A stretch of DNA of 21,431 bases, from the NCBI GenBank assembly GCA_910586425.1, contig CAJUHL010000029.1, positions 1-21,431 on the forward strand, read 5' to 3'. The position numbers and the translations under genes were made by a program. This document shows, piece by piece, positions 1-14,061 of the stretch (its first letter is position 1; every line of letters starts with the position of its first letter). Source of the stretch: an uncultured Bacilli bacterium. GTDB lineage: Bacteria; Bacillota_I; Bacilli_A; RF39; UBA660. The notes beneath the pieces are model-generated. The model was given only the letters and a program-made list of their open reading frames with translations. It did not search any database and was not told the DNA's origin.

Positions 1-148
1 TTGCATTGCTGATTTCAGAAAGCAGCTCCCACTCTAGATTGAACACGTCAATAAGAAAGGCAAGTGCCTCCCTATATATAAAAACTGTCTGTTTTATCGG
101 CTTATTTAAATGCTTAATTTCTACAGCGTAACTGGAAACTGTTTTCAT
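1..148 (-). CDS. TnpB-like IS200/IS605-family protein, N-terminal part (runs off the left edge)
   Basis: Forty-nine codons are visible, read leftward from the ATG at 148, which is preceded by AAAGGAG with 6 bases spacing. The protein begins MKTVSSYAVEIKHLNKPIKQ and continues with TVFIYREAL and an FNLEWELL segment. This SYAVEI...IYR.AL.FLI.VF..EW pattern matches, from memory, the N-terminus of TnpB-related proteins of IS200/IS605-type elements in Lachnospiraceae. TnpB proteins are RNA-guided RuvC-type nucleases, but the RuvC and zinc-ribbon parts lie outside the window, so activity cannot be judged. The gene points out of the window, so any omega RNA at its 3' end would also be outside. Moderate confidence. 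Confidence 0.6.
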   Translation of the reverse strand, partial: MKTVSSYAVEIKHLNKPIKQTVFIYREALAFLIDVFNLEWELLSEISNA

Positions 149-198
149 GAAATCTCCTTTATGATCATATTTCTCTTTTCCCTGATGCTCATATTCTC

Positions 199-212
199 AA
201 ACGCAATCGTTT
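199..212. other. Small perfect hairpin next to the TnpB-like gene, possible element end
   Basis: AAACG-CAAT-CGTTT forms a perfect 5-bp hairpin about 50 bases upstream of the TnpB-like start and touching the stop codon of the next gene. IS200/IS605-family elements end in subterminal hairpins rather than inverted repeats, so this could mark the left end of an inserted element. The position is suggestive; the sequence alone does not prove it. Confidence 0.25.
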
Positions 213-798
213 ATGCCCAGTTAACAATAATAACACCATTTTCATCATACACTGAATAATTATATTCTACATATCCAGATTCCAGCATTGATTCTAATTC
301 CTCCTGAAAAGGATTAGTCCCTCTTATTAACTGATACAGCTGCTTTTCCGTAGCCTCAAACTCCTGACAAACACGCATTGATTTTTCTAACGTCACCTCG
401 ATCTTTACCATACCCTCTTTGGAAGATAGTAATTTATATAATTCTTCAATCATGTTCTTGATCGCTTCAGCATCATCTACTAAAACTTTTATACTACTGG
501 GACAGCCTCCTTTACCTCTATCAGGCAGCCTTTTTTCTACATGTTCATCAATATCAAAATTTTCTGCATAATCACTTAAATTTTTTGAAAATGAAGATAT
601 CGGGTCATCCACATCAAAGTCAATATCCATAATGAAGTCTTCTCCTGCAGGTGAACAGGCTCTTAGTTCTACATAGTTTCTCTCTCCATAATGTGAATTT
701 CCATGATTTAATTCTGGTTCATTATAAATTTCAAAACTCCAGTCTAATTTTTCGCTTCTTTCCAACAGTTTATGTAATTCCATACTATTCTTTTCCAT
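211..798 (-). CDS. Conserved hypothetical protein of phage/plasmid type (195 aa)
   Basis: Function not recognised. I start the gene at the ATG at 798 (MEKNSMELHKLLERSEKLDW). It overlaps the end of the upstream gene by 14 bases, and a longer reading from 927 would run through that gene. The protein is acidic. A central block reads YVELRACSPAGEDFIMDIDF, followed by FDIDEHVEKR and a DDAEAIKNMIEELYKLL helix. This spacing of aromatic, 'SP.GED', 'FD.DEHVE' and 'DDA..IK' elements is familiar from small orphan proteins of Firmicutes phages and conjugative elements. It ends VIIVNWA. It is the last gene of an operon with the two genes upstream of it (785-982 and 999-1508). Confidence 0.75.
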   Translation of the reverse strand: MEKNSMELHKLLERSEKLDWSFEIYNEPELNHGNSHYGERNYVELRACSPAGEDFIMDIDFDVDDPISSFSKNLSDYAENFDIDEHVEKRLPDRGKGGCPSSIKVLVDDAEAIKNMIEELYKLLSSKEGMVKIEVTLEKSMRVCQEFEATEKQLYQLIRGTNPFQEELESMLESGYVEYNYSVYDENGVIIVNWA

Positions 799-982
799 AT
801 CTTTCGCTTTCCTTTCTACTAATTCCGTTTTCCATTTTAAATACATCTTCTTTTGGAATAAAATGCCACTCATCATCAAATGGCGTATGCACATACCACC
901 AGCCATCTGGCATTTGATATCCAACACACTTTATCAAATTTTTAAAGGGTGCCCATTTGACCATTATCTCTTTATTTTCCAT
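785..982 (-). CDS. Small hypothetical protein with Trp-rich strand (65 aa)
   Basis: The start is the ATG at 982, which has GGAGG five bases upstream. An in-frame ATG at 994 would place that site inside the gene, so it is less likely. The protein has the pattern of a small beta-sheet fold: MVKWAPFKNLIKCVGYQ, then DGWWYVHTPFDDEWHFIP, then a charged tail. No family recognised. It lies 16 bases after the HAD gene and overlaps the next gene by 14 bases, so the three are almost certainly translated from one message. Confidence 0.7.
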   Translation of the reverse strand: MENKEIMVKWAPFKNLIKCVGYQMPDGWWYVHTPFDDEWHFIPKEDVFKMENGISRKESERYGKE

Positions 983-998
983 GAAATCCTCCATATCC

Positions 999-1508
999 TT
1001 AATTTTTTGAACGTCTTAAAGTCTGTATTGCCTGGTCTACATGTCTTTGTTGTAGCCCTCCATCTGATTCCTTTTCACAAAAGAATTCTGTTTTTACCAA
1101 CTGCTCGCCAATCCCATATTTTTCGTATTCTTCTTTTGTAAAATCATCATCAAGACTCACAAAATGGATATTTTCTTTATTCTTTTGCTCATTCAGCCAA
1201 GAAACAATCTCCAATGGCCTATTTAAATCTATGAAAGGTGTTTTTGATATAATCTCCATATCATATCTTGCCATACACTCTAACAGATATTGGTACATCG
1301 GATAAACAGACTTGTCAGACTCATCATCCAATCCTCTCCAAGTCGAAGATAATACAATCTTTGCATTACAAGCATGATAAATTTTTGCAAGCATTTCCAG
1401 ATGATAATCGCTTATTTCCTGATACAAAGTATCCATATCAGGCTTTAATGATTCAAAATATGCTAAAGAATTTAAGACGCCATCTACGTCTAAAAAAATA
1501 ATATTCAC
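999..1508 (-). CDS. HAD-superfamily hydrolase-like protein (169 aa)
   Basis: A compact HAD-fold protein, predicted to be a Mg-dependent phosphatase or phosphotransferase. Motif I is FLDVDGVLN (nucleophile D7, acid D9). Motif II is the SSTWR at 54-58. An acidic motif IV, LDDDF, lies at 119-123. The short length, the IVLSSTWR and the late DDD match the HAD domain class described from 'Swiss army knife' RNA-repair proteins and common as stand-alone proteins in phages and plasmids. That class assignment is from memory and the substrate is unknown. The start is GTG at 1508 with AAAGGAG six bases upstream. It is the first gene of a three-gene operon (999-1508, 785-982, 211-798). A TATAAT sits upstream on this strand near 1550, but the -35 is poor. 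Confidence 0.85.
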   Translation of the reverse strand: MNIIFLDVDGVLNSLAYFESLKPDMDTLYQEISDYHLEMLAKIYHACNAKIVLSSTWRGLDDESDKSVYPMYQYLLECMARYDMEIISKTPFIDLNRPLEIVSWLNEQKNKENIHFVSLDDDFTKEEYEKYGIGEQLVKTEFFCEKESDGGLQQRHVDQAIQTLRRSKN

Positions 1509-1620
1509 GAATTTCTCCTTTCTTGTTTTTCTGGTTTTATAATGTTAAATATATTATAAAAATAATACTAACTCTTTTAATTCTTTTATCTCTAGCTTAC
1601 AAGTTTTTGATCTATCAGTT

Positions 1621-1913
1621 TGAAACAAGAGTACTCCCGGTTCTGTAACCAGCGAGGTGAATTGTTTCTTTTAAAGATATAATTTACTTCTCAAAAAATT
1701 ACATTATAATGTTACTGAGGAGGGTCTGAGACTACCGGAAACAGTAACAGATACACTCAGAAACAACCGCTCAGCCTAAGAGAAACTCCTGCCTCTTAGT
1801 GCAACGTAGGCGGGAGTAGTTCATGTTTAGACAAAAAGTGAAATCCAGAGAATTTTCGAAAAGACTCACGCTTCTGTAACCAAGAGTAGTTTAATAAAGA
1901 TAAAATTTCTCTG
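1621..1913 (+). ncRNA. Candidate structured RNA in a 490-base non-coding gap
   Basis: No plausible gene lies in 1509-2002, yet the segment is richer in G and C than other gaps and is full of complementary pieces. Seen directly: GAAACAA 1622-1628 pairs with TTGTTTC 1662-1668; GTTACTG 1711-1717 pairs with CAGTAAC 1742-1748; CTAAGAG 1776-1782 pairs with CTCTTAG 1793-1799; ACTCCTGCCT 1785-1794 pairs with AGGCGGGAGT 1808-1817; CAGAGAATTTT 1846-1856 pairs with AAAATTTCTCTG 1902-1913. The third and fourth overlap, so they are either alternatives or a pseudoknot. A similar hairpin-like block occurs twice (1633-1657 and 1864-1888), each containing TTCTGTAACCA. Plus orientation is favoured because one pair is G-U only on that strand. 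Not matched to a named RNA family from memory; it could also be a long leader of the 2003 gene. Confidence 0.45.
1683..1710 (+). promoter_or_regulatory. Possible sigma-A promoter inside the RNA candidate
   Basis: TTTACT at 1683-1688, 16 bases, then a perfect TATAAT at 1705-1710. Transcription would begin near 1717, inside the first half of the GTTACTG/CAGTAAC stem. If this promoter is the real one, the 5' third of the proposed RNA is not part of the transcript. The two calls are therefore partly in conflict. Confidence 0.4.
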
Positions 1914-2002
1914 TAGCTTCAGGTACATAGTGATTCTCAGTTATTTATATTTCTTTTCTCACATTCTATTATAGATTTTAAAGATGAGAGGAGAGATTAT
2001 TT

Positions 2003-2245
2003 ATGTTAAATGCTTTAGAGGCAAGAATTCGTACAAAACAGAAAATGGAAATGCTTTTATCCAAGGAGCTAGAGATGATTGAGGCCAAAATCATTGACAC
2101 GATTGAGGATGATGCCAACGAAGGCAGAGTCTATCAGGTCTCTATTGAAAAACCATCTGCAGAAGCCGAAAGAGCATTGAAGGCTCACGAATATCACCTT
2201 TATCCTTGCAGTGATAAGGACAAGATCGTTATTTCTTGGGCATAA
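2003..2245 (+). CDS. Small phage/plasmid-type protein ending in ISWA (80 aa)
   Basis: GAGGAGAG lies seven bases before the ATG. Residues 1-40 form a charged helix (MLNALEARIRTKQKMEMLL, then EMIEAKIIDTIEDDANEG). A short alpha/beta part with a GYxV-like register follows and ends KIVISWA. The layout (Ala-rich helix with a Lys-Glu pattern, then a small sheet ending in ISW) resembles short orphan proteins of Firmicutes phages, recalled without a name. It follows the RNA candidate by about 90 bases and has a strong terminator directly after its stop. It may share a promoter with that RNA. Confidence 0.75.
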   Translation: MLNALEARIRTKQKMEMLLSKELEMIEAKIIDTIEDDANEGRVYQVSIEKPSAEAERALKAHEYHLYPCSDKDKIVISWA

Positions 2246-2282
2246 AAAAGAGGAGGGACTGATTAGCAGTTCCTCTTTTTCT
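2245..2282 (+). terminator. Intrinsic terminator after the 80-aa gene
   Basis: AAAAAGAGGA (2245-2254) pairs with TCCTCTTTTT (2271-2280), with an inner ACTG/CAGT stem and a three-G bulge. The T-run is part of the 3' arm. Confidence 0.8.
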
Positions 2283-2345
2283 TATCATTTTTTTCTTGTC
2301 TTTATGTAAATTATTAATGTTAAACATTTTATAAATCAGAATCAA

Positions 2346-2375
2346 AATAAAAAGCCCTTGTAAAAGAGCTTTTAT
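2346..2375 (-). terminator. Probable terminator of the GNAT operon
   Basis: AAAAGC...CTT-GTAA-AAG...GCTTTT forms an imperfect hairpin. On the minus strand it is followed by TTTTTATTTT, 16 bases after the GNAT stop. It could also work in the plus direction. Confidence 0.6.
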
Positions 2376-2390
2376 ATCTTTATTTTTTTA

Positions 2391-2729
2391 TTAGGCCACT
2401 TTATAAATATTACCTCTTATTCTTTGCACATCCCTATTTGAAAAATAAGAATTCCAAAACTTAATCGCACTTTCGCTGTGCTTTGAAACACAGAGGGAAA
2501 CTGGAACTTTAAAATATTCCATCAATGCATCTACCACCCGCGTAGAATGCCCTTTTCTCCTGTAACATTCATTTATGCTTATTTGCCTAATAAATACCTC
2601 CTCTTTATGGATGGTCAAAAGGAGTTCTCCTATCTCCATACTCTCATAAAAGATTTTTGTATCCAAAAAATTCTCAAATTCTGAAGTTATAATTAAACTA
2701 TAATTATTATTGAGATTGATCCTATTCAT
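2391..2729 (-). CDS. GNAT-family N-acetyltransferase-like protein (112 aa)
   Basis: A short GNAT-fold protein, predicted to move an acetyl group from acetyl-CoA to an unknown amine. The acetyl-CoA loop (motif A) is visible as YRRKGHSTRVVDALMEYF at about 56-73, a variant of R/QxxGxG/A in which the last glycine is Ser. It is preceded by the expected strand (EVFIRQISINE) and followed by SLCVSKHSESAIKFW, the usual beta-5/alpha-4 region. At 112 residues it lacks part of the usual N-terminal half of the fold (typical length 140-170), so it is a minimal or degenerate member. Start ATG with AAGGAG seven bases upstream. It follows the 181-aa gene by 19 bases and is co-transcribed with it. Confidence 0.75.
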   Translation of the reverse strand: MNRINLNNNYSLIITSEFENFLDTKIFYESMEIGELLLTIHKEEVFIRQISINECYRRKGHSTRVVDALMEYFKVPVSLCVSKHSESAIKFWNSYFSNRDVQRIRGNIYKVA

Positions 2730-2748
2730 ATTTCTTCTCCTTCATTCT

Positions 2749-3294
2749 TTAATCCATGAAACAGTATTCCGGAATATATACTTCTAACCCATCTTTTTTA
2801 TTTATCTTTACTACCAATCTTCCCTCCTTGATATGAAAAACCTTCTGTCCCTCCATAACCTGTAACGTAATATAGTACATCTTATCAGGAAGTTTCTCAG
2901 CCTTGTTTTTTATGTATTCCATAATAGAATCTACCATTTTCAGATAGTATTGTTCCAAAATCTCTCGATTGAGATATTTTAGATATGCGTTAAAGTTATG
3001 GTTTCCTGGCATCTCACACCATTCATATTTTACTTGAGGATTATGGTTTCCTTTCGCCTGCTCGTTATAGTATTTCATTCTTCCATCAAACAGGTAAAAC
3101 ATGGAAGCTAAATCATAAAGTAACTTTTTTAATGGCTGTAAATCCTCATTTTTACTCAAAGACAAGATTTCCAAACACTGTTCCTTCATGCGCTTTAAAT
3201 AGTCCTCTTTATAAAGAGGTGTTTTCTCAATTCCATCATCTGTTAACTGCTTAAGAATTTCTTCCCAAGTGATATCCTTTCGTTTTCTTCTCAT
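2749..3294 (-). CDS. Hypothetical protein, helical with C-terminal sheet (181 aa)
   Basis: Not recognised. It begins with a basic stretch (MRRKRKDITWEEILKQL) and is largely helical to about residue 140, with an aromatic-rich middle (KYEWCEMPGNHNFNAYLKYL). It ends in a small beta meander (MYYITLQVMEGQKVFHI, GRLVVKINKKDGLEVYIPEY). No signal peptide or TM segment. Start ATG behind GGAGAGAGG. It heads the two-gene unit with the acetyltransferase-like gene and could encode its target or partner, by position only. Confidence 0.7.
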   Translation of the reverse strand: MRRKRKDITWEEILKQLTDDGIEKTPLYKEDYLKRMKEQCLEILSLSKNEDLQPLKKLLYDLASMFYLFDGRMKYYNEQAKGNHNPQVKYEWCEMPGNHNFNAYLKYLNREILEQYYLKMVDSIMEYIKNKAEKLPDKMYYITLQVMEGQKVFHIKEGRLVVKINKKDGLEVYIPEYCFMD

Positions 3295-3476
3295 TTTCCT
3301 CTCTCCTTTTCACGTTGTTATATGTATTATGCGATTTTTTAATATATGAAAATTTAGAATAGCCTTTTTAATAAGAGAAGGACTATAGATCCTTTTTGGT
3401 AGATAAGGCCTTTAGTCTTCATGAATGTATTTTTTACAGAGTTCTGCTTCAACTTGAATTGTTACTATTTCATTTT

Positions 3477-3497
3477 AAACAGGATACGTATCTGTTT
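3477..3497. promoter_or_regulatory. Imperfect palindrome upstream of the nuclease-like gene
   Basis: AAACAGGATACGTATCTGTTT is a near-perfect palindrome centred on a fully symmetric GATACGTATC, with one extra G. It sits about 80 bases before the gene at 3576 and just upstream of a TATAGT (3502-3507), a good place for an operator. No convincing -35 was found. The rest of the 3295-3575 gap shows nothing clear. Confidence 0.35.
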
Positions 3498-3575
3498 TCT
3501 GTATAGTGATTATCGTTATCTCTCTTCTTTTATGAACATTATTTATGCGAGAAAGATTGAAGGAGAAAGATTAAC

Positions 3576-4313
3576 ATGATGTTCATGTGTCAACATAGCG
3601 TAAAAATCAAGAAGGATACAGCGCTTACTTATAAAGAAATACAACAATTAGTAAGAAGGGATAAATTAAATAGTCCAGGTTTTGCTAAATATTTTAAAAC
3701 ACTTGAGGAGATGAAGAAATATGATAAAAAGGAACTTCCAGGGCTTGGAAAGCAGGAGTTCAGTGCAGCATATAAGCTACATCTTAGCAAGTTTCAAAGA
3801 AAAGTAACAGCAGCAATAACAGCTCTCATCGATTATTTAAAGATCTGCCATGGGATTCAACTGACTTTAATGATTGACGCACGGCTGATTGATGGCAGAA
3901 AATTTGAGGTAGATTGTTTTATAAAGGAACTTAAAGCTTGTTATGATGTATATGGGAGTGACCATGATAGATTGGAACGTAGACTTGATGATCGAGAGAA
4001 GCATTTGCTATTAAAAGGATTGGGTTACAAAGTGACAATCATCTGTCCATACGGGTATGGATGTAATGAAGAAGATCAAGTAATTCAATCTGCAGAAAAC
4101 AGATGTGGAATCGATACACTATTTGATGTAATAAAGGATATTCTTAAAGAAACAAACAAGAAATATAAATGGAGATTGAGTAGTTACGATCTGGACCATA
4201 AGACGAATGAAGTTTTAAAATTTATGGAATCTGATATTCGGTATGACACGAATTGTTTCTTAGTAGACTGGGAAGTAGAAAAACTAAGAAGATTAAATAA
4301 AATTGCGATTTAA
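3576..4313 (+). CDS. PD-(D/E)XK-nuclease-like protein (245 aa)
   Basis: The C-terminal half has the order of elements seen in small Vsr/DUF559-type restriction-like endonuclease folds. A strand carries VDCFI (112-116), and a second carries KACYDVYGSDHD (120-131), where the catalytic (E/D)xD-G-xxH region usually lies. A helix with DDREKHLLLKGLGY (138-151) follows, then the strand KVTIICP. In the family this reads 'D..R...L...GY.V..I'. The active-site set here (D113, D124, H130) is not canonical, so it may be inactive or a diverged nuclease. The N-terminal 100 residues are basic and helical (KDTALTYKEIQQLVRRDK). Start ATG with AAGGAG ten bases upstream. It stands alone between a palindrome and a terminator, next to the ParB-like gene. 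Fold inferred, function unknown. Confidence 0.6.
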   Translation: MMFMCQHSVKIKKDTALTYKEIQQLVRRDKLNSPGFAKYFKTLEEMKKYDKKELPGLGKQEFSAAYKLHLSKFQRKVTAAITALIDYLKICHGIQLTLMIDARLIDGRKFEVDCFIKELKACYDVYGSDHDRLERRLDDREKHLLLKGLGYKVTIICPYGYGCNEEDQVIQSAENRCGIDTLFDVIKDILKETNKKYKWRLSSYDLDHKTNEVLKFMESDIRYDTNCFLVDWEVEKLRRLNKIAI

Positions 4314-4350
4314 AATTGAAAATAAAGTAGACTATATAGTTGAATTACAT

Positions 4351-4377
4351 AAATGGAGGGAGACCTCCTTTTTTATT
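4351..4377 (+). terminator. Intrinsic terminator after the nuclease-like gene
   Basis: GGAGG-GAGA-CCTCC with a GNRA-type loop (4355-4368), followed by TTTTTTATT. Confidence 0.75.
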
Positions 4378-4433
4378 ATCCATAAAATTTTAATTCCATA
4401 CTACATTTATAATAAAGACGAATGGAGGAATTA

Positions 4434-5456
4434 ATGATGGCAAAAGAGTTAAAAGTTCTTAACAGGGAGCAGCTTTTTAAGGAAGCCTTTCAAGATGTAT
4501 TGGACAAACTTGAAAAGCTGGGTATTGCAAGTAATTTGCTTATGGATATTGCATTGAAACTTTTCGAAAGAGCTGTTGGTTGTTCATCTAAGACACATGT
4601 TTGTACAGTTGTATATGAAACGACCGACTATGAGATGTTTAGGTTTATTGAAGGCAATCGTGAAATAAACAAGACAAATGAGAAAAACCTGAAAAAGAAT
4701 TTTGGAGAAAATGGAGAAGACTATATCATGAATCCCATCATTGTGAATGAAAAGATGGAGATCATTGATGGTCAACATCGGTTCAAGGCATTAAAGGAAC
4801 TTGGAAAGCCAATTCATTATATTGTTGTTGAAGGTATAGGATGCGATGCGGCTCAGAGGATGAATCAGGTAAGCCTTCGCTGGTCTTTGCTAAATTACGT
4901 AAAGTACCACAGTGAGACCGATCCGAACTGTGCTAGGCTTTATGAATTAATTAAAATTTATAATATGGAGAAGCCTCGTGGGAAGAAATTAACTGTTACT
5001 ACAATCTACGGGAATGTATTAGGCCATCCAGCAAGTAGTTCAAATCAGGCAGTGAAGGATCTTTTAACGAGTAATTCTTTTAAATTTTCAGAAAAGGAAT
5101 ATGAAAAAGCAAAAGGAAAGTTTAATATAGTTTCTGAGTTTAAAAAAGAATATAAATTCCTTAGCAAAACGGCTCATCCGGATAAGCTTTTGAGTGCGAT
5201 ATATTATTTGATAGCAGTTAAGGGATGCAATCAAACCCGGTTTAGCAATGGTTTAAAAATGATGTCAACACAGAAAGATAGAAAAGATCTTAAATCAGGA
5301 AACTTCAAGGAGTGTTTAAATACAGCCTACGAGATTTACTGCATGGGTCCTGGAAGGTACAAGAAACTTGATATCGATGAAATTAATAAGGAATGCCATC
5401 CGATAGCCCGCAAGAAGGGTAAAACTAAGACAGTCAAAGCAAAAACAGAAGCGTGA
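4434..5456 (+). CDS. ParB-like N-terminal (DGQHR) domain protein (340 aa)
   Basis: The sequence IIVNEKMEIIDGQHRFKALK with the GKPIHYIVVEGI that follows is the hallmark of the ParB/sulfiredoxin-like domain (DGQHR at about 112-116). In chromosome and plasmid partition ParBs this fold binds CTP. In many phage and plasmid homologues it occurs with DNA-binding or nuclease roles. Here a helical N-terminus of about 60 residues precedes the domain, and a helix-rich C-terminal half ends in a basic tail (HPIARKKGKTKTVKAKTEA), consistent with nucleic-acid binding. No ParA partner is in the window, so partition is unproven. An in-frame ATG at 4422 contains the GGAGG site (4424-4428), so the start is 4434 or 4437. 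TATAAT at 4408-4413 could be its -10. A strong terminator follows. Confidence 0.85.
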   Translation: MMAKELKVLNREQLFKEAFQDVLDKLEKLGIASNLLMDIALKLFERAVGCSSKTHVCTVVYETTDYEMFRFIEGNREINKTNEKNLKKNFGENGEDYIMNPIIVNEKMEIIDGQHRFKALKELGKPIHYIVVEGIGCDAAQRMNQVSLRWSLLNYVKYHSETDPNCARLYELIKIYNMEKPRGKKLTVTTIYGNVLGHPASSSNQAVKDLLTSNSFKFSEKEYEKAKGKFNIVSEFKKEYKFLSKTAHPDKLLSAIYYLIAVKGCNQTRFSNGLKMMSTQKDRKDLKSGNFKECLNTAYEIYCMGPGRYKKLDIDEINKECHPIARKKGKTKTVKAKTEA

Positions 5457-5477
5457 TAACGCGTTTTTTGCAACAAG

Positions 5478-5506
5478 AGGGAAGGATCGAAGCCTTCCCT
5501 TTTCTT
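5478..5506 (+). terminator. Intrinsic terminator after the ParB-like gene
   Basis: AGGGAAGG (5478-5485) pairs with CCTTCCCT (5493-5500) around a 7-base loop, followed by TTTCTTA. Confidence 0.85.
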
Positions 5507-5651
5507 ATAGATAAATCTTATTTTTTTCTATCATTGAAATCAAGTTTTTATCATATATCGATAATTCTTTTTCAGATAGTTTTGGTTTTAATTGTTCCAA
5601 GCTTTTAATTATAATCCATGGACAATTTTCTCTGCTTTTTCGTATTTTCAT
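5505..5651 (-). CDS. Possible small protein (48 aa), convergent with the ParB-like gene
   Basis: An open frame begins MKIRKSRENCPWIIIKSLEQ, continues with two charged helices and ends KNKIYL. Composition is protein-like, with amphipathic helices and no rare-codon bias. However, there is no convincing ribosome site before the ATG; an AGGAAG lies 25 bases upstream, before codons that cannot start. It fills part of the 5507-5798 gap, which otherwise holds only the purA terminator. Low confidence. Confidence 0.35.
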   Translation of the reverse strand: MKIRKSRENCPWIIIKSLEQLKPKLSEKELSIYDKNLISMIEKNKIYL

Positions 5652-5754
5652 TCTATTGTTCTTTATAACAACTTCCTGATTTTATAATGATTCATTTTAA
5701 CAATATACGCAATCTTTTTAACTCGAAAAATTTTCTCCATTTTATGGAATTTAC

Positions 5755-5785
5755 CCACAAAAAAAGAGTACAACGTACTCTTTTT
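5755..5785 (-). terminator. Intrinsic terminator after purA
   Basis: AAAAAGAGTAC-AAC-GTACTCTTTTT is an 11-bp perfect stem at 5761-5785. On the minus strand a TTTTTTTGTG tail follows. It lies 14 bases after the purA stop. Confidence 0.85.
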
Positions 5786-5798
5786 ATATTCCTTTTCC

Positions 5799-7075
<1,277 letters not shown>

Positions 7076-7082
7076 CTAATAT

Positions 7083-7157
7083 TTACAATACATTCTTTTC
7101 TTTTTTACTACCATTTAAATAAGAAATAACTGCCTTCTTATCCTTTACCGCAATCAT
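7083..7157 (-). CDS. Possible leader peptide before purA (24 aa)
   Basis: ATG at 7157 opens a 24-codon frame, MIAVKDKKAVISYLNGSKKE followed by KNVL. It ends five bases before the purA ribosome site. Only a weak AAGGA lies upstream, at about nine bases. It could be a coupled leader, a gene remnant or chance. Confidence 0.25.
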   Translation of the reverse strand: MIAVKDKKAVISYLNGSKKEKNVL

Positions 7158-7174
7158 TTTTTATGTTCCTTGCA

Positions 7175-7810
7175 TTACGATACCGAATATTCTATGATCT
7201 GCATGAGTATATAGTCACCTTCTATACTTTCGTCATCTCTATGATAGTTTCTGATCAGTTCCATAAATTCCTTATCATACATTTGCTTTAATAGGGATTC
7301 TCTTCCTTTCTTTACATAGGTTTCATATAAACGATTTATGATTGCCCAATGATGAATCCTATTTTCATCGATAAACTTATATACTTTTTCAAGATATTCA
7401 ATTTTTAGCGGGTTTTCACATTTTATAAATCTCCTGAGTTGATAGATCATGTCTGGTGACCAATATTTTGAAAGGATCTGCTTTGCTAAAAGATAGCTCC
7501 TTTCCCATTCTTTTGTTTCTCCATAAAGTTCCTGGCTGTCTTCCAAGTAACGCCGCATCTCATTGATTTGTGCTGCTGATACATACTGATCCTCTATAAA
7601 TAATTCATATGGAATATCATGTGTCATACATTTAATCAGTTGTTCTAACTGCTCCGTTTCATATCCGCTGTCAATTTTACTTAAAAAATAAAAAAATTGT
7701 CCTTCCTTTCCTCTTTCCTCTAAAAAACGGTAGAGGAACAAAAGCTGATAGATCTTAATTGGCCAGTAGTCCTCTTCAAGAAGCTTATCATACAACTCCT
7801 TTAATTCCAT
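7175..7810 (-). CDS. Hypothetical all-helical protein (211 aa)
   Basis: Not recognised. Predicted to be almost wholly alpha-helical, with repeated aromatic/Leu helices: MELKELYDKLLEEDYWPIKI, IYQLLFLYRFLEERGKEGQF, WSPDMIYQLRRFIKCE, IHHWAIINRLYETYVKKG. The spacing suggests paired antiparallel helices of a TPR- or HEAT-like adaptor, but no consensus repeat was found. No signal or TM segment. Its ATG overlaps the last ten bases of the disrupted small membrane gene upstream (ATGGAATTAA), so its translation may have been coupled to that gene. It ends about 110 bases before purA. Confidence 0.7.
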   Translation of the reverse strand: MELKELYDKLLEEDYWPIKIYQLLFLYRFLEERGKEGQFFYFLSKIDSGYETEQLEQLIKCMTHDIPYELFIEDQYVSAAQINEMRRYLEDSQELYGETKEWERSYLLAKQILSKYWSPDMIYQLRRFIKCENPLKIEYLEKVYKFIDENRIHHWAIINRLYETYVKKGRESLLKQMYDKEFMELIRNYHRDDESIEGDYILMQIIEYSVS

Positions 7811-7914
7811 GTTCCTTCTTTGTCTCCTTCGTCCATGTAAGAATGCTTTTTCTTATTGAACATAACTAAAATACTTTAAATCAAACAACAAATTGCCGTA
7901 AATATTTCTAACAT
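7801..7914 (-). pseudogene. Small single-TM protein gene interrupted by an in-frame TAA
   Basis: A strong AAAGGAG sits five bases before the ATG at 7914. The reading frame gives MLEIFTAICCLI, a TAA (7876-7878), then in the same frame SILVMFNKKKHSYMDEGDKE and GTWN before a real stop at 7801. Read through, this is a typical small membrane protein: one hydrophobic helix of about 19 residues, then a Lys cluster and an acidic tail, 37 residues in all. The TAA falls in the middle of the helix; one base change from TTA (Leu) would create it. As it stands only a 12-residue hydrophobic peptide is made. Alternatively it is a short leader and the downstream match is chance, which I consider less likely. 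Confidence 0.5.
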
Positions 7915-7971
7915 TATGTCTCCTTTCTTTCATATACATAATTAGTATGCAAGTAATTTTAAGACAAAGAA

Positions 7972-7998
7972 AAAACAGTAGAAAAAATCTACTGTTTT
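7972..7998 (-). terminator. Intrinsic terminator of the 9103-8055 operon
   Basis: AAAACAGTAGA (7972-7982) pairs perfectly with TCTACTGTTTT (7988-7998) around AAAAA. A T-run lies on the minus strand and also on the plus strand. Confidence 0.85.
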
Positions 7999-8054
7999 TG
8001 TTTGATAGACTTGCACCCTTTATTCATTGTTTTTTGTGAACTCCTCATGACAAA

Positions 8055-8189
8055 TCACGAAAGTTCTTTGCCAGCTTCTAAAATATATCTCTCTTTAAAC
8101 TCATCCTTAAAGATATCTATCTGTGGATCTGCTTTTAATGCGACAATTGCTCTAGCAATTCGGCACATAGCTTCTATATCATCCATCAT
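8055..8189 (-). CDS. Small helical protein (44 aa)
   Basis: A short gene with a good ribosome site: GAGGAG five bases before the ATG at 8189. The protein is MMDDIEAMCRIARAIVALKA, then DPQIDIFKDEFKERYI, ending EAGKELS. It looks like two or three amphipathic helices and has no known family. It is the last gene of the operon, 27 bases after the Cys-rich gene, and the terminator at 7972-7998 follows. The opposite-strand open frame over it (8002-8205) is a shadow. Confidence 0.6.
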   Translation of the reverse strand: MMDDIEAMCRIARAIVALKADPQIDIFKDEFKERYILEAGKELS

Positions 8190-8216
8190 TTTGGCTCCTC
8201 TATAGGAATTCTGTGT

Positions 8217-8408
8217 TCATTCATTACACAGCCCTCCTTGATCATAGATAGCGAATACTTTTGTGCTCTGAAATTGCTCTCTGAATACGCTATCTCCGTA
8301 TTTTAAACAGTCATACCCAAATGGATAACCCTTATCATCGGTTCTAATGTTAAGCTGCCTGCATTTTTCACAGTTTCTATTACATGATATCATCTTTGTA
8401 TCAATCAT
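8217..8408 (-). CDS. Small Cys-rich protein with CxxxCxxC (63 aa)
   Basis: The N-terminus has ISCNRNCEKCRQLN (three Cys within eight residues), then GYDCLKYGD, and a last Cys three residues from the end (GGLCNE). Four or five Cys in this pattern suggest a single zinc site or a small ribbon. Aromatic residues (GYPFGYD, VFAIYDQ) provide a small core. Ribosome site GGAGAG is 10-12 bases from the ATG, rather far. It lies between its operon neighbours with gaps of 22 and 27 bases. It shares the CxxC theme with three larger proteins at 12142-14727. Confidence 0.65.
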   Translation of the reverse strand: MIDTKMISCNRNCEKCRQLNIRTDDKGYPFGYDCLKYGDSVFREQFQSTKVFAIYDQGGLCNE

Positions 8409-8430
8409 TTTTTTGTTCTCTCCTTATAAA

Positions 8431-8850
8431 TTATCTAGATTTTCTTCTTTTAACATTTGTCAGTTTCCACAGTTCTCTCTCAGGGATATAACATCCGCCA
8501 GACTGAAGGATTGGATCAGAAATAACCGTTGATTTTTCCCAATTGCAATCATAGCAAGATGTATCATTTGGTATTTCAGCTTCCCAGCATGGTACTTTCT
8601 TTTTTAGATGGTTTAATGCCAGATTACTTTTGTGGCCATCTATGAAACACCAAATCCCTCTCTTGAAATCCTCCAAATGTTCTGTATAAAAGCTCACTTT
8701 GTTTTCATGACTTTGTTTGACTTCCAGTCTCATAAATTCCGGATAATCTTCCAGTTTAAACTCATCTGAAAGATGATATCGAATATGTTCAGCATGATGA
8801 GTTTGTTTCTGTGGATGAAATCCTGTTGTGGAATACCTAATTATCCTCAT
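8431..8850 (-). CDS. Hypothetical protein (139 aa)
   Basis: Not recognised. The sequence is rich in His and aromatics: MRIIRYSTTGFHPQKQTHHA, then HIRYHLSDEF, RGIWCFIDGHKSNLALNHLK, a CYDCNW pair and GGCYIPERELWKL, ending in a basic KRRKSR. A 'strand, FIDGHKSNLA, helix' segment suggests an alpha/beta fold. Possible metal ligands are His19, His20, His23 and the CxxC, but no known motif emerges. Start ATG with AGGTGATT upstream. It begins four bases after the stop of the gene at 8855-9103, so the two are tightly coupled. Confidence 0.7.
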   Translation of the reverse strand: MRIIRYSTTGFHPQKQTHHAEHIRYHLSDEFKLEDYPEFMRLEVKQSHENKVSFYTEHLEDFKRGIWCFIDGHKSNLALNHLKKKVPCWEAEIPNDTSCYDCNWEKSTVISDPILQSGGCYIPERELWKLTNVKRRKSR

Positions 8851-8854
8851 ATAA

Positions 8855-9103
8855 TCACCTCAATGAAAGTGTTAGCACTACTGCATTCACCTTTTCCTTG
8901 TTATAATGATTCGTGTAATATTCACTCCCTAAGTAGCTGCAATCATCAATATACTCTTCCAAAGTATTCCTATCCCGGCTCTGATGAACGATTTCCTCAC
9001 GGACATTTTTTAATTCGTGATAACCCAGTTCTATATCATTTAATAATACAACTGGATTTCCTTCAATAGACTGTAATTTTTTAATCAATTCATTTTTTGT
9101 CAT
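8855..9103 (-). CDS. Small phage/plasmid-type protein, MTKNELIKKL family style (82 aa)
   Basis: It begins MTKNELIKKLQSIEGNPVVL, followed by a short strand and a helix, and ends VNAVVLTLSLR. The opening 'MTxxELIxxLxxI.GNP.V' is a very common start among short orphan proteins of Firmicutes phages and conjugative elements; no biochemical role is known to me. Ribosome site AAAGGA, seven bases before the ATG. It is the first gene of the five-gene operon that ends at the 7972-7998 terminator. The upstream gap 9104-9268 holds AT-rich sequence with no convincing promoter. Confidence 0.72.
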   Translation of the reverse strand: MTKNELIKKLQSIEGNPVVLLNDIELGYHELKNVREEIVHQSRDRNTLEEYIDDCSYLGSEYYTNHYNKEKVNAVVLTLSLR

Positions 9104-9268
9104 ATACTATCCTTTCTCTAAAAATTATCCTCTATTTATCTATTTACGAATAGTATGTTTAATATAACAAATGATAATAATGAATTGACGCGAAACTTTA
9201 TATTAAGTTATTTCAATAGGATTCATTTTTCCAGCTTTTCTTAACCTTTTAAATATTCTTATTTGCTC

Positions 9269-9314
9269 TGTGAGTTTGCAATTATATCAAATGTGAGTTT
9301 GCAATTATATCAAA
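9269..9314. repeat. Perfect 23-bp tandem duplication at a gene end
   Basis: TGTGAGTTTGCAATTATATC plus AAA occurs twice without any mismatch (9269-9291 and 9292-9314). The second copy lies in the last codons of the gene at 9282-9740 and the first holds its current stop. With one copy only, that protein would end ANSQSK instead of ANSHLI. Confidence 0.95.
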
Positions 9315-9740
9315 TAGAACTGCTTCAAAAATTGATCTGTATGTCATATTATCATACACGACATCAATTGTTTTAGGTTTATAATCTATTTCAAATCTTT
9401 CTTTATATTCCCTGATATCTTGTTCCCATACAATTCCATAATTTTTTCTCATATAGTTATAGATGTAATGGAGTACCTCAGATCTTTTTCTAAAAGAAGA
9501 ACCTCCACTAATTAATATCCTTATCTGCCCATTTATTTCCCTACGCCATTTTATCCTATCATCTACTACAATAACTTTCTTTTTGGATCTAATAGTTTTT
9601 TTTGAAGATGATTTTCCATAAATAGATAATAAATCCGTTTTCATTTCATTAAGAAAAGAGTTTATTTCTTCCATATCTTTTTGCAATACTTCTAATTTAT
9701 GTTCAATATCATCATAATTTACAGAGAATGTTTGTTTCAT
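9282..9740 (-). CDS. Hypothetical protein with N-terminal coiled coil (152 aa)
   Basis: Not recognised. Residues 8-40 form a probable coiled coil (DIEHKLEVLQKDMEEINSFL). A lysine-rich linker, SSSKKTIRSKKKVIVVDDRI, follows, then an alpha/beta part (QIRILISGGSSFRKRSEVLH, YIYNYMRKNYGIVWEQDIRE). The basic linker and helix-rich second half would suit nucleic-acid binding, but no motif is diagnostic. The C-terminus has been rewritten by the 23-bp duplication over the stop. Ribosome site GGCGGGAAG just before the ATG is unusual. It stands alone, 126 bases from the J-domain gene. Confidence 0.7.
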   Translation of the reverse strand: MKQTFSVNYDDIEHKLEVLQKDMEEINSFLNEMKTDLLSIYGKSSSKKTIRSKKKVIVVDDRIKWRREINGQIRILISGGSSFRKRSEVLHYIYNYMRKNYGIVWEQDIREYKERFEIDYKPKTIDVVYDNMTYRSIFEAVLFDIIANSHLI

Positions 9741-9866
9741 TCTTCCCGCCTTTACTGTCTATATATCATTTTCATTATCTATATAACTATTTTCTATATT
9801 CTAAGATAACACCTATTATATGAATTATAGTCATTCCATATCATTAATCTAATGATTATATATTTA

Positions 9867-10664
9867 TTATAACCTCCAGTCATTTTTCAGTTCATTCAGT
9901 AATTTCATATGTTCGCTGGTATCTTGTCCAATATTCGCATCAGGATGATAAAATTTTGCTAAAGTTCTATAAAATTGTTTCAATATTTTTCTTTGATTTA
10001 TGGTATAAATGGTATTACAACTTTTGTAGTTACTATTTTGTTCTTTTTCATAACTACTTCGGCTTTTAATTTTTTTCAAGTATGATTCATTAGTTAAATT
10101 TCCGTATAAGTCATAACAAATGTCATACTCCTGACTGAAAGCATCATATTCAAGTAAAAATTTTCGCTTAGCATCTTCATAAGTATTAATTAATTTCTTG
10201 TGTTTTAAAAATATTCTTCCTTCTTCTGTTTCACTAAATTCTTTTCGTATTTTATCAAATAAAGGATCTATTTTTATAGCCAAAGAATCATATAAATCTT
10301 CTATATATTCATCCTTTTTATCATCTTGAATATTAAAAGATTCAATAATTAAATCTAACTTAGAAAATAATCGATAATAAAGAGAGTTTTCTGAATCATA
10401 AGAATCTTCTTCACGTGATTCTGCTATATCATAATAGTTTAAAGTTGCAACCACACACTGTCTTTTTTTAATTTTCCCGTCTTCTCTATAAGATTCATGT
10501 AAAGATATACGATAAGATTTTTTTATGGTTCTCTTAAAACATTCTTGGCTAAACGTATAAGTATTAACCAATATACCATCAACATTTTTAGTACCTAATA
10601 TAATCTCTTTGGGTCTACCTTTAACTTCTCTTTTCATCTTTAATTCTTGTATATAAAAATACAT
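9867..10664 (-). CDS. Protein with C-terminal J-domain (HPD motif), 265 aa
   Basis: The last 40 residues read as a J-domain: helix II KILKQFYRTLAKFYHPDANI with HPD at 240-242, then helix III EHMKLLNELKNDWRL. J-domains recruit and stimulate an Hsp70 (DnaK). Here the domain is at the extreme C-terminus and the protein ends inside helix III, so helix IV is missing. The first 220 residues are not DnaJ-like. A beta-rich N-terminus (MYFYIQELKMKREVKGRPKE) with a CVVATLNYYD strand is followed by long charged helices (about 100-205). No zinc fingers or G/F region. The N-terminal part probably picks the client. AGGAG is eight bases before the ATG. It is flanked by AT-rich gaps and has no clear operon partner. 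Confidence 0.75.
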   Translation of the reverse strand: MYFYIQELKMKREVKGRPKEIILGTKNVDGILVNTYTFSQECFKRTIKKSYRISLHESYREDGKIKKRQCVVATLNYYDIAESREEDSYDSENSLYYRLFSKLDLIIESFNIQDDKKDEYIEDLYDSLAIKIDPLFDKIRKEFSETEEGRIFLKHKKLINTYEDAKRKFLLEYDAFSQEYDICYDLYGNLTNESYLKKIKSRSSYEKEQNSNYKSCNTIYTINQRKILKQFYRTLAKFYHPDANIGQDTSEHMKLLNELKNDWRL

Positions 10665-10716
10665 ACATTATTCTCCTAAAGTTATTATATTTAAAAATTA
10701 AATAACTACATATATT

Positions 10717-10752
10717 TCGCACTCGTCTGAAGAAGAGATTTCCGAATTGCGA
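10717..10752. other. GC-richer patch with a weak stem, upstream of the J-domain gene
   Basis: TCGCA (10717-10721) pairs with TGCGA (10748-10752) around a segment containing a CTC/GAG stem. It stands out from a very AT-rich gap 50-90 bases before the J-domain start. It may be a cis-regulatory RNA hairpin or a protein site; weak evidence. Confidence 0.22.
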
Positions 10753-10814
10753 CATTTTATTACATACTCACATATGACTTAATATAATGATAACGATATT
10801 ATACATCTAAAATC

Positions 10815-11066
10815 CTAGTTTAACAAATCTTCATATATTTTCAATGCTTTTCTTAGCCCAGCATTTTTACCTTTACTATATGTATCTTTAACAATTACTC
10901 CATTTATCTCTTTTGATATTTCTTCATTATATTGTTCATATAAATGCAACTCCGCTATTGTTTCAATAAGATATTCCGCCATATCTTCAGCATCAAAATT
11001 CATTCCTCTTTCACTATTACCATAAATTTGAATAGCAGAAATTAGTCTATCTTTTAAATCTTCCAT
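10815..11066 (-). CDS. Small helical hypothetical protein (83 aa)
   Basis: Mostly alpha-helical and acidic: MEDLKDRLISAIQIYGNSER, then DAEDMAEYLIETIAEL, and a C-terminal KGKNAGLRKALKIYEDLL helix. GGAG lies seven bases before the ATG. No family recognised; the size and helix pattern would fit a small regulator or antitoxin, but nothing in the sequence decides this and no toxin partner is adjacent. It lies 150 bases upstream of the J-domain gene. Confidence 0.65.
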   Translation of the reverse strand: MEDLKDRLISAIQIYGNSERGMNFDAEDMAEYLIETIAELHLYEQYNEEISKEINGVIVKDTYSKGKNAGLRKALKIYEDLLN

Positions 11067-11233
11067 TTACTTTCTCCATTTCAATTCCAGCAAATATCCA
11101 CAAAGGCTCTTTATATTTTCTTCCGTATTTTCCGAGAATTGTTACAATACTGTCTCTAATATTTTCTCAATCTCTATGACTTTCAAATGTTAGGTAATTT
11201 ATTCATTGTATTGTCTCCAACTCAGTTTTAATT

Positions 11234-11557
11234 TTACAGTCCTATCCATACTCTGTCATCATCACAAAAATCATAAAATTCTCTCAAATTAAAATTAAGA
11301 TTATTCTCTTCATCATAATAGTTGTAGATATCTGTATCTACTTCTGGGCACGAAGTTTGAAAATCTTCTATCATACAATCTATATTATATTGCATATTAA
11401 TTTTGTCTACTCCAATGAGTTTCAATTTTAGACACTTTAAGCAAACAACCATCTGATTATATACAGAAACTATGGTATCCAGCGATTCGTTGCCTTCATC
11501 AATTAACTTTCTTAGCTGCTTGCCCTCGTCTTCTAATTTATATTTCCATCTTCCCAT
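11234..11557 (-). CDS. Hypothetical acidic protein (107 aa)
   Basis: I place the start at the ATG at 11557 (MGRWKYKLEDEGKQLRKLID), six bases after a GGAGG. The frame is open for eight more codons, but that would put the ribosome site inside the gene. An N-terminal helical half (LDTIVSVYNQMVVCLKCL) is followed by a very acidic, aromatic-rich C-terminal half (DTDIYNYYDEENNLNFNLRE, CDDDRVWIGL). No family recognised. It lies 28 bases after the 94-aa gene and is probably in the same transcript. Confidence 0.68.
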   Translation of the reverse strand: MGRWKYKLEDEGKQLRKLIDEGNESLDTIVSVYNQMVVCLKCLKLKLIGVDKINMQYNIDCMIEDFQTSCPEVDTDIYNYYDEENNLNFNLREFYDFCDDDRVWIGL

Positions 11558-11585
11558 ATATTGCCTCCACCTAAAAAACATTCTA

Positions 11586-11870
11586 TTACTTATTTACATC
11601 TAACCATATGCAACTCTTATCATATTCTATATCCAATCTTAAAAAATCTGCTCTCATTTTATCTCTCATTTTCGCCATCATATCTAATTGCAAATAAGAG
11701 ATTGTACTTCTGGTTTGTTCTAATGCAACATCACTTTCAGGCATGTAATAAATATAAACAATAGTATCCAGATAACCATTAAATTTCGCCCAAAGTTCCA
11801 TTTTACTTGTATCATCATTCTGTGTGGCTATGTACTTATATCCTTGTTTAATCAATTCTTGTTTATTCAT
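11586..11870 (-). CDS. Hypothetical protein (94 aa)
   Basis: A perfect AGGAGG lies eight bases before the ATG. The protein opens MNKQELIKQGYKYIATQNDD, then a strand pair (LDTIVYIYYMPESD) and a long helix (YLQLDMMAKMRDKMRADFL), ending CIWLDVNK. The alpha/beta-hairpin/alpha plan is common in small orphan accessory proteins; no name. It is the first gene of a two-gene unit whose probable promoter is at 12057-12085, giving a leader of about 180 bases. Confidence 0.7.
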   Translation of the reverse strand: MNKQELIKQGYKYIATQNDDTSKMELWAKFNGYLDTIVYIYYMPESDVALEQTRSTISYLQLDMMAKMRDKMRADFLRLDIEYDKSCIWLDVNK

Positions 11871-12056
11871 AAGTAGGTCCTCCTATATATACTATACTAT
11901 TCTCTTCTCTTTCCTCTTCCAGCATATTATTTAAGAGTCCGTTTATCTTCAATAAAAATAGTTCGCTGGTTACAGCATATCACTTTATTTGTCCATATCC
12001 CATATCAAGGTATCTTTATCCAACTTTGCAAAAATGATAATATAAACATTACAAAT

Positions 12057-12085
12057 AGTATACTATGTTTTTCTATTACAGTCAA
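12057..12085 (-). promoter_or_regulatory. Strong sigma-A promoter, 180 bases upstream of the 94-aa gene
   Basis: On the minus strand TTGACT, exactly 17 bases, TATACT. The -10 sits inside a perfect 12-bp palindrome, ATAGTATACTAT (12055-12066), which could be an operator. Between the expected start near 12050 and the gene at 11870 I see no convincing gene; short open frames there lack ribosome sites. The promoter lies just past the terminator of the upstream gene. Confidence 0.75.
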
Positions 12086-12100
12086 TTTTTTCTATAATAT

Positions 12101-12141
12101 AAAAAACTAGGCTATCTGTGAACCAGATAACCTAAGTTTTG
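12101..12141 (-). terminator. Intrinsic terminator of the 131-aa gene
   Basis: AAAACT.AGG.TATCTG pairs with CAGATA.CCT.AGTTTT (two small interruptions) around TGAAC, followed on the minus strand by TTTTTTATATT. It begins immediately after the stop codon. Confidence 0.82.
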
Positions 12142-12537
12142 TTACTGTAATTTAAACAACTTTTTCCACCACACATCCTTACTTACGACATAATTCCCGT
12201 CTTCATCCGATAAAAATAACTGTATATCATCCTCAGAATCTATATGAAGGAATTTTCCCGGATTCAAACTTGAAAATCCTCCGGTTAAAGTTAAAACTGT
12301 TTGTCCCACTTTCGGATACTCCGCCTTCTCCTTATAACCCAGATAAGATAGATATAGTAAAGGATCACTCCAGAATACAAAATAATCCAACGTCCCTTCC
12401 TTTAATGACTTTATTTCTTCCCTCTCAAGAATACAGTTCTCGATTTGAAACACATCTGCACCTCCCATTAGCGGGCATAGATTTCTTTTGTAAAATTCAC
12501 AATTTAAACATCTCTTCCTGTTCTCTATTTTACCCAT
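12142..12537 (-). CDS. Protein with N-terminal Cys4 module (131 aa)
   Basis: Residues 10-37 hold CLNC-x7-C-x13-C, in the segment KRCLNCEFYKRNLCPLMGGA and the Cys of IENCI, a likely single zinc or iron-sulfur site. The rest is a beta-rich domain: YFVFWSDPLLYLSYLGYKEK, then VGQTVLTLTGGFSSLNPG, LHIDSEDDIQLFLSDEDGN, ending in an aromatic DVWWKKLFKL. The order suggests a small-barrel or OB-like C-terminal domain. No known family. It is one of four proteins in this window with a CxxC-led four-Cys pattern. The ribosome site (GAAGGGAAAG) is far from the ATG. Terminator directly follows. Confidence 0.7.
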   Translation of the reverse strand: MGKIENRKRCLNCEFYKRNLCPLMGGADVFQIENCILEREEIKSLKEGTLDYFVFWSDPLLYLSYLGYKEKAEYPKVGQTVLTLTGGFSSLNPGKFLHIDSEDDIQLFLSDEDGNYVVSKDVWWKKLFKLQ

Positions 12538-12680
12538 AATTCTCTTTCCCTTCTTCTATTCTTGTACTGGGAATCCTTCTTGTATCAGTCCTCTATTTCT
12601 TTGCAGTTTATTCTGGCAATCTATTGACATTCATTAAAACGTGCCGTCTGCAGTAACCTCTGATATATTTACACCTTATT

Positions 12681-13148: not shown

Positions 13149-13228
13149 ATCTCCCTCCATATCGATTAAGCGCTGCTCTAAACCATTTTTAAGTGCTGCT
13201 TTATGAATACCTATTTATGTGTTAGGTT

Positions 13229-13399: not shown

Positions 13400-13446
13400 A
13401 AAGGTATTCCTCCTCCTATTTTAAATATTTAAAGAAATTCCAGCAA

Positions 13447-14053: not shown

Positions 14054-14061
14054 AGATCCTC

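What the first reader, a model, noticed from the sequence alone, without database searches (positions are those of the whole stretch)
1621..1913. Candidate uncharacterised structured RNA with overlapping hairpins or a pseudoknot
About 490 bases lack a gene but hold at least five complementary stem pairs of 7 bp or more. One 7-bp hairpin (CTAAGAG/CTCTTAG) carries in its loop the start of a 10-bp pairing (ACTCCTGCCT/AGGCGGGAGT), so the two either exclude each other, as in a riboswitch, or form a pseudoknot. ACTCCCG at 1633-1639 is a third possible partner for the CGGGAGT at 1811-1817. The plus strand is favoured because one pair is a G-U wobble only there.
Basis: partly seen in the sequence, partly recalled or inferred. 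Interest (0 to 1): 0.72.

Follow-up and report, generated by a model that had tools for sequence, protein, structure and literature searches.

The report
Orphan structured RNA candidate
A stretch of gene-free bacterial-type DNA of unknown origin looks like the template of a folded RNA of about 215 bases that matches no catalogued RNA family, but no relatives could be reached to prove the fold or show what it does.

Summary
The 494-base gene-free gap (1509-2002) holds one compact unit, 1618-1832 (+), closed by a long helix (1618-1639/1811-1832) around three hairpins. It folds better than shuffles on the + strand (z -4.2, 0 of 300) and less so on the - strand (z -2.4); fixed tiles and the whole gap give weaker values. 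Its core 1714-1830 is 49% G+C, against a mean of 31% for intergenic tiles of this window. No Rfam family matches. CGGGAGT 1811-1817 can pair with ACTCCCG 1633-1639 (favoured by about 7 kcal/mol) or ACTCCTG 1785-1791, not both, so 'overlapping alternatives' is right; a pseudoknot is possible but not favoured. A unit at the 5' end (1622-1685) is repeated at 1858-1908 (0 of 3000 shuffles). No homologue was found in the phage, plasmid, viral-contig and genome searches made, so covariation, the decisive test, is untested; 'riboswitch' stays a guess. Best reading: a + strand structured RNA, probably the 5' leader of the 80-residue gene at 2003, whose ribosome site also lies in a hairpin. A self-standing small RNA is almost as likely. 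Real-looking, unclassified and unproven.

The parts
1618..1639 (+). P1, 5' arm of the closing helix; contains ACTCCCG (1633-1639)
   Evidence: MFE fold of 1618-1832, z -4.17, 0 of 300 shuffles
1811..1832 (+). P1, 3' arm; CGGGAGT 1811-1817 is the strand shared by the alternative pairings
1654..1690 (+). P2 hairpin, 12 bp (1654-1665/1679-1690) with G-U pairs, capped by 4 more pairs
   Evidence: 1650-1695 (+) z -5.50, 0 of 300; (-) z 0.15
1710..1765 (+). P3 hairpin (1710-1719/1756-1765 and inner 1724-1728/1748-1752); alternative 8-bp stem 1710-1717/1742-1749
   Evidence: 1700-1770 (+) z -3.29, 0 of 300; (-) z -2.14, 11 of 300
1774..1802 (+). P4 hairpin with CTAAGAG/CTCTTAG; loop 1783-1792 holds ACTCCTGC
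1785..1817 (+). P5, alternative 10-bp pairing 1785-1794/1808-1817, exclusive with the inner part of P1 and overlapping P4 by two bases
1714..1830 (+). G+C-rich core, 48.7% G+C against a mean of 30.6% (sd 5.7) for 120-nt intergenic tiles; the 8 richest of 258 tiles start between 1699 and 1769
1622..1685 (+). Unit A of an internal direct duplication (ACTCcCGgTTCTGTAACCA ... TAAAGATATAATTT)
   Evidence: score reached by 0 of 3000 shuffles
1858..1908 (+). Unit B, second copy (ACTCaCGcTTCTGTAACCA ... TAAAGATAAAATTT)
1823..1879 (+). 18-codon ORF with GGGAG six bases before its ATG; that GGGAG is buried in P1 or in P5; stop codon inside unit B; not known to be translated
1949..1997 (+). 13-bp hairpin (1949-1961/1985-1997) that covers the Shine-Dalgarno of the 80-aa ORF; energy not unusual against shuffles (z -1.8, 16 of 300; z -1.2, 28 of 200)
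2003..2245 (+). 80-aa ORF of unknown function, taken as real because two database proteins match it along its whole length (99% and 79%)
2248..2280 (+). Terminator-like hairpin; the scan of 1400-2400 listed no other on the + strand

Best explanation
A + strand structured RNA of about 215 nt (1618-1832), most likely a cis-acting 5' leader element of the 80-aa gene at 2003. Shown: the arms, the fold excess, its strand bias, the G+C island, the internal duplication, and that the scan lists no + strand terminator-like site before 2248. Inferred: it is transcribed with the 80-aa gene. The strand CGGGAGT first meets the nearby ACTCCTG (P5) as it is made, or the more stable distant ACTCCCG (P1); a protein, ligand or ribosome shifts the balance, freeing or hiding unit A, and this changes downstream folding around the ribosome site of the 80-aa gene, which sits in a 13-bp hairpin. 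The signal is unknown.
For: Fold 1618-1832 (+) z -4.17, 0 of 300; P2 alone z -5.5 on + and 0.15 on -. G+C 48.7% in 1714-1830 between flanks of 21% and 29%. Gene-free, between divergent genes. Alternative partners with modelled energies -65.3 and -58.0. The scan of 1400-2400 lists no + strand terminator-like site before 2248, so a + transcript could run into the 80-aa ORF. Among 31 gene starts tested, the start at 2003 had the least accessible Shine-Dalgarno (unpaired 0.00) and the second lowest local energy.
Against: No homologue, hence no covariation. No transcript data. Fold values for stretches not chosen from the fold are weaker (the observation check), and 1717-1835 alone is ordinary (z -0.53, 59 of 200). 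The part between the unit and the gene does not stand out (1840-1920 z -0.33), and the ribosome-site hairpin is not unusual (28 of 200). About 73 bp before 2003 (1927-1999) resemble those before ORF 3576, perhaps a shared promoter, so the gene could be transcribed without the unit. Promoter-like sites lie inside the unit (1683-1710, 10 of 12) and just before the gene (1944-1972, 9 of 12); either would leave out the P1 5' arm, though such sites are about as common in shuffles (5 found, 3.5 expected). Stronger fold outliers among fixed tiles exist in this window (5401-5600 + z -4.48; 7801-8000 + z -4.31; 13332-13531 - z -3.54).
Confidence: 0.38

Rival explanations
1. A self-standing small noncoding RNA that uses the same structured unit, acts in trans or as a protein partner, and is made from its own promoter and ended by processing.
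For: Compact unit closed by a long terminal helix; G+C island; the downstream gene may have its own promoter because the sequence before it resembles that before ORF 3576 (score 41, 3 of 3000 shuffles).
Against: No terminator-like site listed on the + strand between 1832 and 2248, and no promoter-like site listed on the + strand between 1400 and 1618.
Confidence: 0.28
2. A DNA-level control region between divergent genes: the repeated unit (A and B) is a binding site for a regulator or partition protein, and folding of the strand is a by-product.
For: Units A and B are duplicated in sequence (0 of 3000 shuffles) although they fold differently; the gap is divergent; a ParB-like gene lies at 4422-5456 (PHROG match).
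Against: The fold excess of 1618-1832 is stronger on one strand, and P2 exists on that strand only; the G+C island is mostly between the units, not in them.
Confidence: 0.17
3. Upstream-ORF or leader-peptide control: translation of the 18-codon ORF 1823-1879, whose GGGAG is hidden in P1 or P5, governs downstream folding.
For: ATG with GGGAG at six bases' distance, stop inside unit B.
Against: Very short; conservation not testable; both alternative folds hide the same site, so the switch would not control it.
Confidence: 0.07
4. Chance: an AT-rich gap with some complementary stretches and no RNA.
For: Stem numbers are at expectation when G-U is allowed; unselected stretches give z between -0.5 and -2.8 in several tests; no + strand 120-nt tile of the gap is among the 14 best of 182; no homologue found.
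Against: 0 of 300 shuffles fold as well as 1618-1832, and fixed 220-nt tiles reach -3.62; P2 and P3 are each extreme on their own; the G+C island is the richest of the 258 intergenic tiles tested.
Confidence: 0.1

Closest known systems
ROOL and GOLLD RNAs (passages seen in PMC12286853)
   Same: Large folded RNAs of unknown function; ROOL's predicted structure has multiple pseudoknots.
   Different: Many GOLLD members exceed 800 nt, and both classes are often near tRNA islands in phages and prophages (PMC12286853); here the unit is about 215 nt, ARAGORN found no tRNA in the window, no Rfam family matches, and whether the source is a phage or other mobile element is not known.
raiA motif / ModT (RF03072; passages seen in PMC11706538)
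   Same: A Bacillota RNA with pseudoknots and of similar size (a 215-nt stretch was deleted in C. difficile).
   Different: No Rfam match here.
Low-ranking and riboswitch candidates of the intergenic-region screen of 50 genomes (passages seen in PMC11109978)
   Same: Structured gene-free region upstream of a gene whose ribosome site can be hidden.
   Different: That screen ranks motifs by number of distinct representatives and consensus model (usually fewer than five: low-ranking; insufficient evidence: unnamed). Here there is one sequence and no covariation.

Membership tests
   0 matches in the whole window; at E up to 5 only two matches in 1500-2010, 13.6 and 13.3 bits against 40 and 45 needed; at E up to 1 three sub-threshold matches in the window, none in the gap
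ROOL / GOLLD | tRNA genes nearby (often, not always) | tested here: not met
   ARAGORN found none in 21431 bp
Riboswitch (as a kind) | Structured aptamer conserved by covariation in homologues | not testable with these tools
   No homologous DNA found
Riboswitch (as a kind) | Mutually exclusive pairings | tested here: met
   CGGGAGT 1811-1817 shared by P1 and P5; possible in sequence, not shown to occur
Riboswitch (as a kind) | Expression platform coupled to the aptamer (terminator or hidden ribosome site that overlaps a switching strand) | tested here: inconclusive
   Hidden ribosome site at 1985-1997, but neither P1 nor P5 overlaps it; no + strand terminator-like site before 2248
H-type pseudoknot | Two crossing stems able to exist together | tested here: inconclusive
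   P4 (7 bp) and an 8-bp part of P5 could coexist by loop lengths (recalled rules); with P4 formed and both P5 strands open the fold has -35.4 and the crossing duplex -12.3, against -65.3 for the P1 state; pseudoknots were not modelled explicitly

The most novel reading that the evidence does not exclude
The founding sequence of a new structured RNA class from a poorly covered bacterial or mobile-element lineage, in which one strand toggles between a long-range and a local helix and thereby exposes or hides a duplicated recognition box (ACTCnCGnTTCTGTAACCA).
Probability: 0.2. Interest if true: 0.68.

Novelty: new member of a known kind. Interest (0 to 1): 0.4.

Why it matters
If the fold is confirmed it adds an RNA class from a lineage that the genome collections searched here hardly cover: the gene beside it has two database relatives and the 245-aa gene nearby three, all with source tags 'lgn' or 'ena' only. 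Orphan RNAs of this sort can prove to be new ligand sensors or control parts of mobile DNA. At present it is one sequence with thermodynamic and compositional support only.

Tried and rejected
Known families: Rfam at gathering level and at relaxed E gave nothing credible. tRNA/tmRNA: none. A hammerhead-like string around 1715-1742 was considered by eye (recalled consensus) and dropped: the helix order does not fit and Rfam gives no match.

Homologue hunting, all negative for the gap: blastn of 1560-2002 against phages and plasmids; megablast of the window against both; the 80-aa protein in viral contigs (4 pattern matches, no relative) and, as an alignment of three, in genome contigs (103 pattern matches, no relative); the HAD alignment in viral contigs (24 pattern matches, no relative) and genome contigs (94 pattern matches, one relative, L005, Acetivibrio ethanolgignens, without the RNA); the 265-aa protein in phages and viral contigs; the ParB-like protein in plasmids (two distant hits, not followed). 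Exact RNA strings in viral contigs: none, 4, 2 and 6 loci. Of those 12 loci, the four were read around the hit and L020, L021, L023: nothing like the unit; L022 and L024-L027 were judged only by the covariance model, which found nothing in the 8 loci. blastn of 1608-1930 in 397 genomes of the family of G001: 2 hits, L006 and L007, both inside long ORFs (protein names, subtilase-like and ComFC-like, are my reading and recalled), judged chance. blastn of window 1-19990 in 397 genomes of that family: 35 have a match at E 1e-8, none within the gap. Single-sequence covariance model R1: 0 of 397 genomes and 0 of 391 of the class; in the loci it gave the window itself, the window's minus strand at 1652-1692 (18.5 bits), L005 (14.5 bits, a plain inverted repeat on view) and L003 (7.1 bits). 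An empty model search shows little: one sequence, strict filters, samples of the groups.

A third copy of the repeat, CTGTAACCAGCGA at 11963-11975 (-), is the best match to unit A elsewhere in the window, but 44 of 200 shuffles do as well; not claimed. It was 0 of 100 under a looser scoring and 104 of 3000 in the gap-to-gap comparison. Similarity of the gap to 7811-8430 (-) and 20514-20940 (-), 0 of 100 at first, came to 18 and 31 of 3000. The 2003/3576 upstream similarity: 0 of 100, 4 of 100 under a looser scoring, 3 of 3000 and 0 of 200 (where 3 of 325 upstream pairs had 0 of 200; this one scored highest). Reading the repeat as paired promoters was dropped because the spacing from repeat start to the TATAAT-like part differs (39 and 31 nt).

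Full report
What is there. The window is AT-rich (33% G+C) with many small ORFs without a Pfam family. Between a HAD-domain gene read leftwards (999-1508; Pfam PF18143) and an 80-aa ORF read rightwards (2003-2245) lie 494 bases without a gene. Two bases of the 10-base arm are shared with the hairpin's own 3' arm.

Is it more than chance. Stem counts are a poor test: 7 perfect stems of at least 7 bp, reached by 7 of 150 shuffles, and no excess once G-U is allowed (25 against 24.8), although 5 stems of 10 bp or more with G-U are reached by only 2 of 150. Folding energy: 1618-1832 has -63.8 kcal/mol on the + strand, z -4.17, 0 of 300 shuffles; the - strand z -2.38, 6 of 300. A second run with the fold tool on 1608-1835 gave z -4.13, 0 of 200. 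The ends were picked from the fold, and less selected stretches are weaker: fixed 220-nt tiles peak at z -3.62; 200-nt tiles gave -2.83 for 1501-1700 and -1.34 for 1601-1800, which cuts the closing helix (426 tiles); 1700-1835 -1.89 and 1600-2010 -1.58; 1560-2002 -1.83, 2 of 100; the whole gap -2.46, 0 of 60; 1717-1835 -0.53. P2 (1650-1695, z -5.5 on +, 0.15 on -) and P3 (1700-1770, z -3.29 on +, -2.14 on -) stand out on their own, but in a scan of 182 intergenic 120-nt tiles no + strand tile of this gap is among the 14 best listed. Other fixed tiles of the window stand out more (5401-5600 + z -4.48, 7801-8000 + z -4.31), some of them at terminator-like hairpins. A second, independent sign is composition: 1714-1830 is 48.7% G+C, with flanks of 21% (1509-1617) and 29% (1833-2002); of 258 intergenic 120-nt tiles the 8 richest all start between 1699 and 1769. 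That G+C-rich gaps in AT-rich genomes often mark structured RNAs is recalled; a pipeline named GC-IGR is mentioned in passages of PMC11109978.

Anatomy. The favoured fold is a long closing helix P1 (1618-1639 with 1811-1832, with bulges) around P2 (1654-1690), P3 (1710-1765) and P4 (1774-1802). In P4's loop lies ACTCCTGC, which can pair with GCGGGAGT of the P1 3' arm. Forcing this P5 pairing costs about 7 kcal/mol (-58.0 against -65.3), while the outer part of P1 stays. So the two are alternatives, with the distant one favoured at equilibrium and the local one able to form first during synthesis (inference). An H-type pseudoknot of P4 and the first 8 bp of P5 has workable loop lengths (recalled rules), but it would lose the inner P1 and is not favoured by these energies; pseudoknots were not modelled explicitly.

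The duplication. The segment 1622-1685 recurs at 1858-1908: ACTCcCGgTTCTGTAACCA (17 of 19 identical) and TAAAGATATAATTT/TAAAGATAAAATTT (13 of 14); the alignment score is reached by 0 of 1000 and 0 of 3000 shuffles under two scorings. Unit A supplies the 5' arm of inner P1; unit B has one mismatch to CGGGAGT, and its surroundings (1840-1920) do not fold better than shuffles. It may be a recognition box or a decayed duplicate.

Surroundings. In the scan of 1400-2400 the only + strand terminator-like site is 2248-2280, after the 80-aa gene, so a + transcript would be expected to run on. The Shine-Dalgarno of that gene is inside a 13-bp hairpin (1949-1961/1985-1997); it was the least accessible of 31 starts, but folds of that energy arise in 28 of 200 shuffles. 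About 73 bp before 2003 (1927-1999) resemble 3503-3573 before ORF 3576 (score 41; 3 of 3000 shuffles; highest score among the three of 325 upstream pairs with 0 of 200; but 4 of 100 under a looser scoring). This could be a shared promoter, in which case the structured unit need not be in the same transcript. Promoter-like sites lie within the unit (1683-1710) and before the gene (1944-1972), in numbers close to what shuffles give (5 found, 3.5 expected). An 18-codon ORF (1823-1879) starts just after the CGGGAGT strand.

Relatives. The 80-aa protein has two relatives, at 99% and 79%, among 5.8 billion proteins; the 245-aa neighbour has three. Their source tags are 'lgn' and 'ena'; I take these as assemblies of public reads (inference). 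The HAD protein's own entry spans 314 contigs, the longest 525,091 bases. None of the searches of phages, plasmids, viral contigs and genomes found the gap; the genome searches with DNA or the model saw samples of 397 and 391 genomes, and metagenome contigs were not open to me. Hence no covariation test was possible. The source organism is not known; one distant HAD relative lies in Acetivibrio ethanolgignens.

Judgement. That it is a + strand structured RNA of some sort I put at about 0.65 (leader 0.38 plus self-standing RNA 0.28). It belongs to no Rfam family tested. What lies beyond 'alternative pairing is possible in the sequence' is inference. Papers: PMC12286853, PMC11706538 and PMC11109978 were seen as passages; others only in search listings. 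I make no claim that nothing in print describes it beyond those two searches and Rfam.

Noticed in passing
5799-7066 (-): Adenylosuccinate synthetase gene split into two frames (5799-6305 and 6359-7066, both PF00709); the frame changes just after the AEGAQ stretch. It may be a broken gene, an assembly error or a frameshift site.
   Followed up: partly
1927-1999 and 3503-3573 (+): About 73 bp upstream of ORF 2003 and ORF 3576 are similar (score 41; 3 of 3000 shuffles; 4 of 100 under a looser scoring), suggesting a shared promoter or leader.
   Followed up: partly
13385-13530 (-): Long imperfect hairpin, z -3.2 to -3.8, followed by AGGAGGAGG and an ATG; possible leader structure.
   Followed up: no
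11963-11977 (-): CTGTAACCAGCGA, 13 bases of unit A, in the gap upstream of the ORF at 11870, with AAGATAAA 17 bases after CTGTAACCA; not significant over the whole window (44 of 200 shuffles). The terminator scan also lists this spot as a weak 5-bp hairpin.
   Followed up: yes
999-1508 (-): HAD_SAK_2 protein: 336 proteins at E 1e-10 or better (120 listed, tags lgn, ena or jgi); its own entry spans 314 contigs up to 525 kb, which suggests a large source replicon, yet the pattern-based genome scan gave only one relative.
   Followed up: partly
1717-1729 and 2250-2262 (+): GAGGAGGGTCTGA in P3 is repeated (12 of 13) in the 5' arm of the terminator-like hairpin after the 80-aa gene; purine-rich, may be chance.
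   Followed up: no
15361-16371 (-): 336-aa protein behind most of the DNA matches that 35 of 397 genomes of the family of G001 gave to the window, with VTxEVT-type repeats towards its C-terminus; may be of a nuclease or transposase family (recalled, not tested).
   Followed up: no
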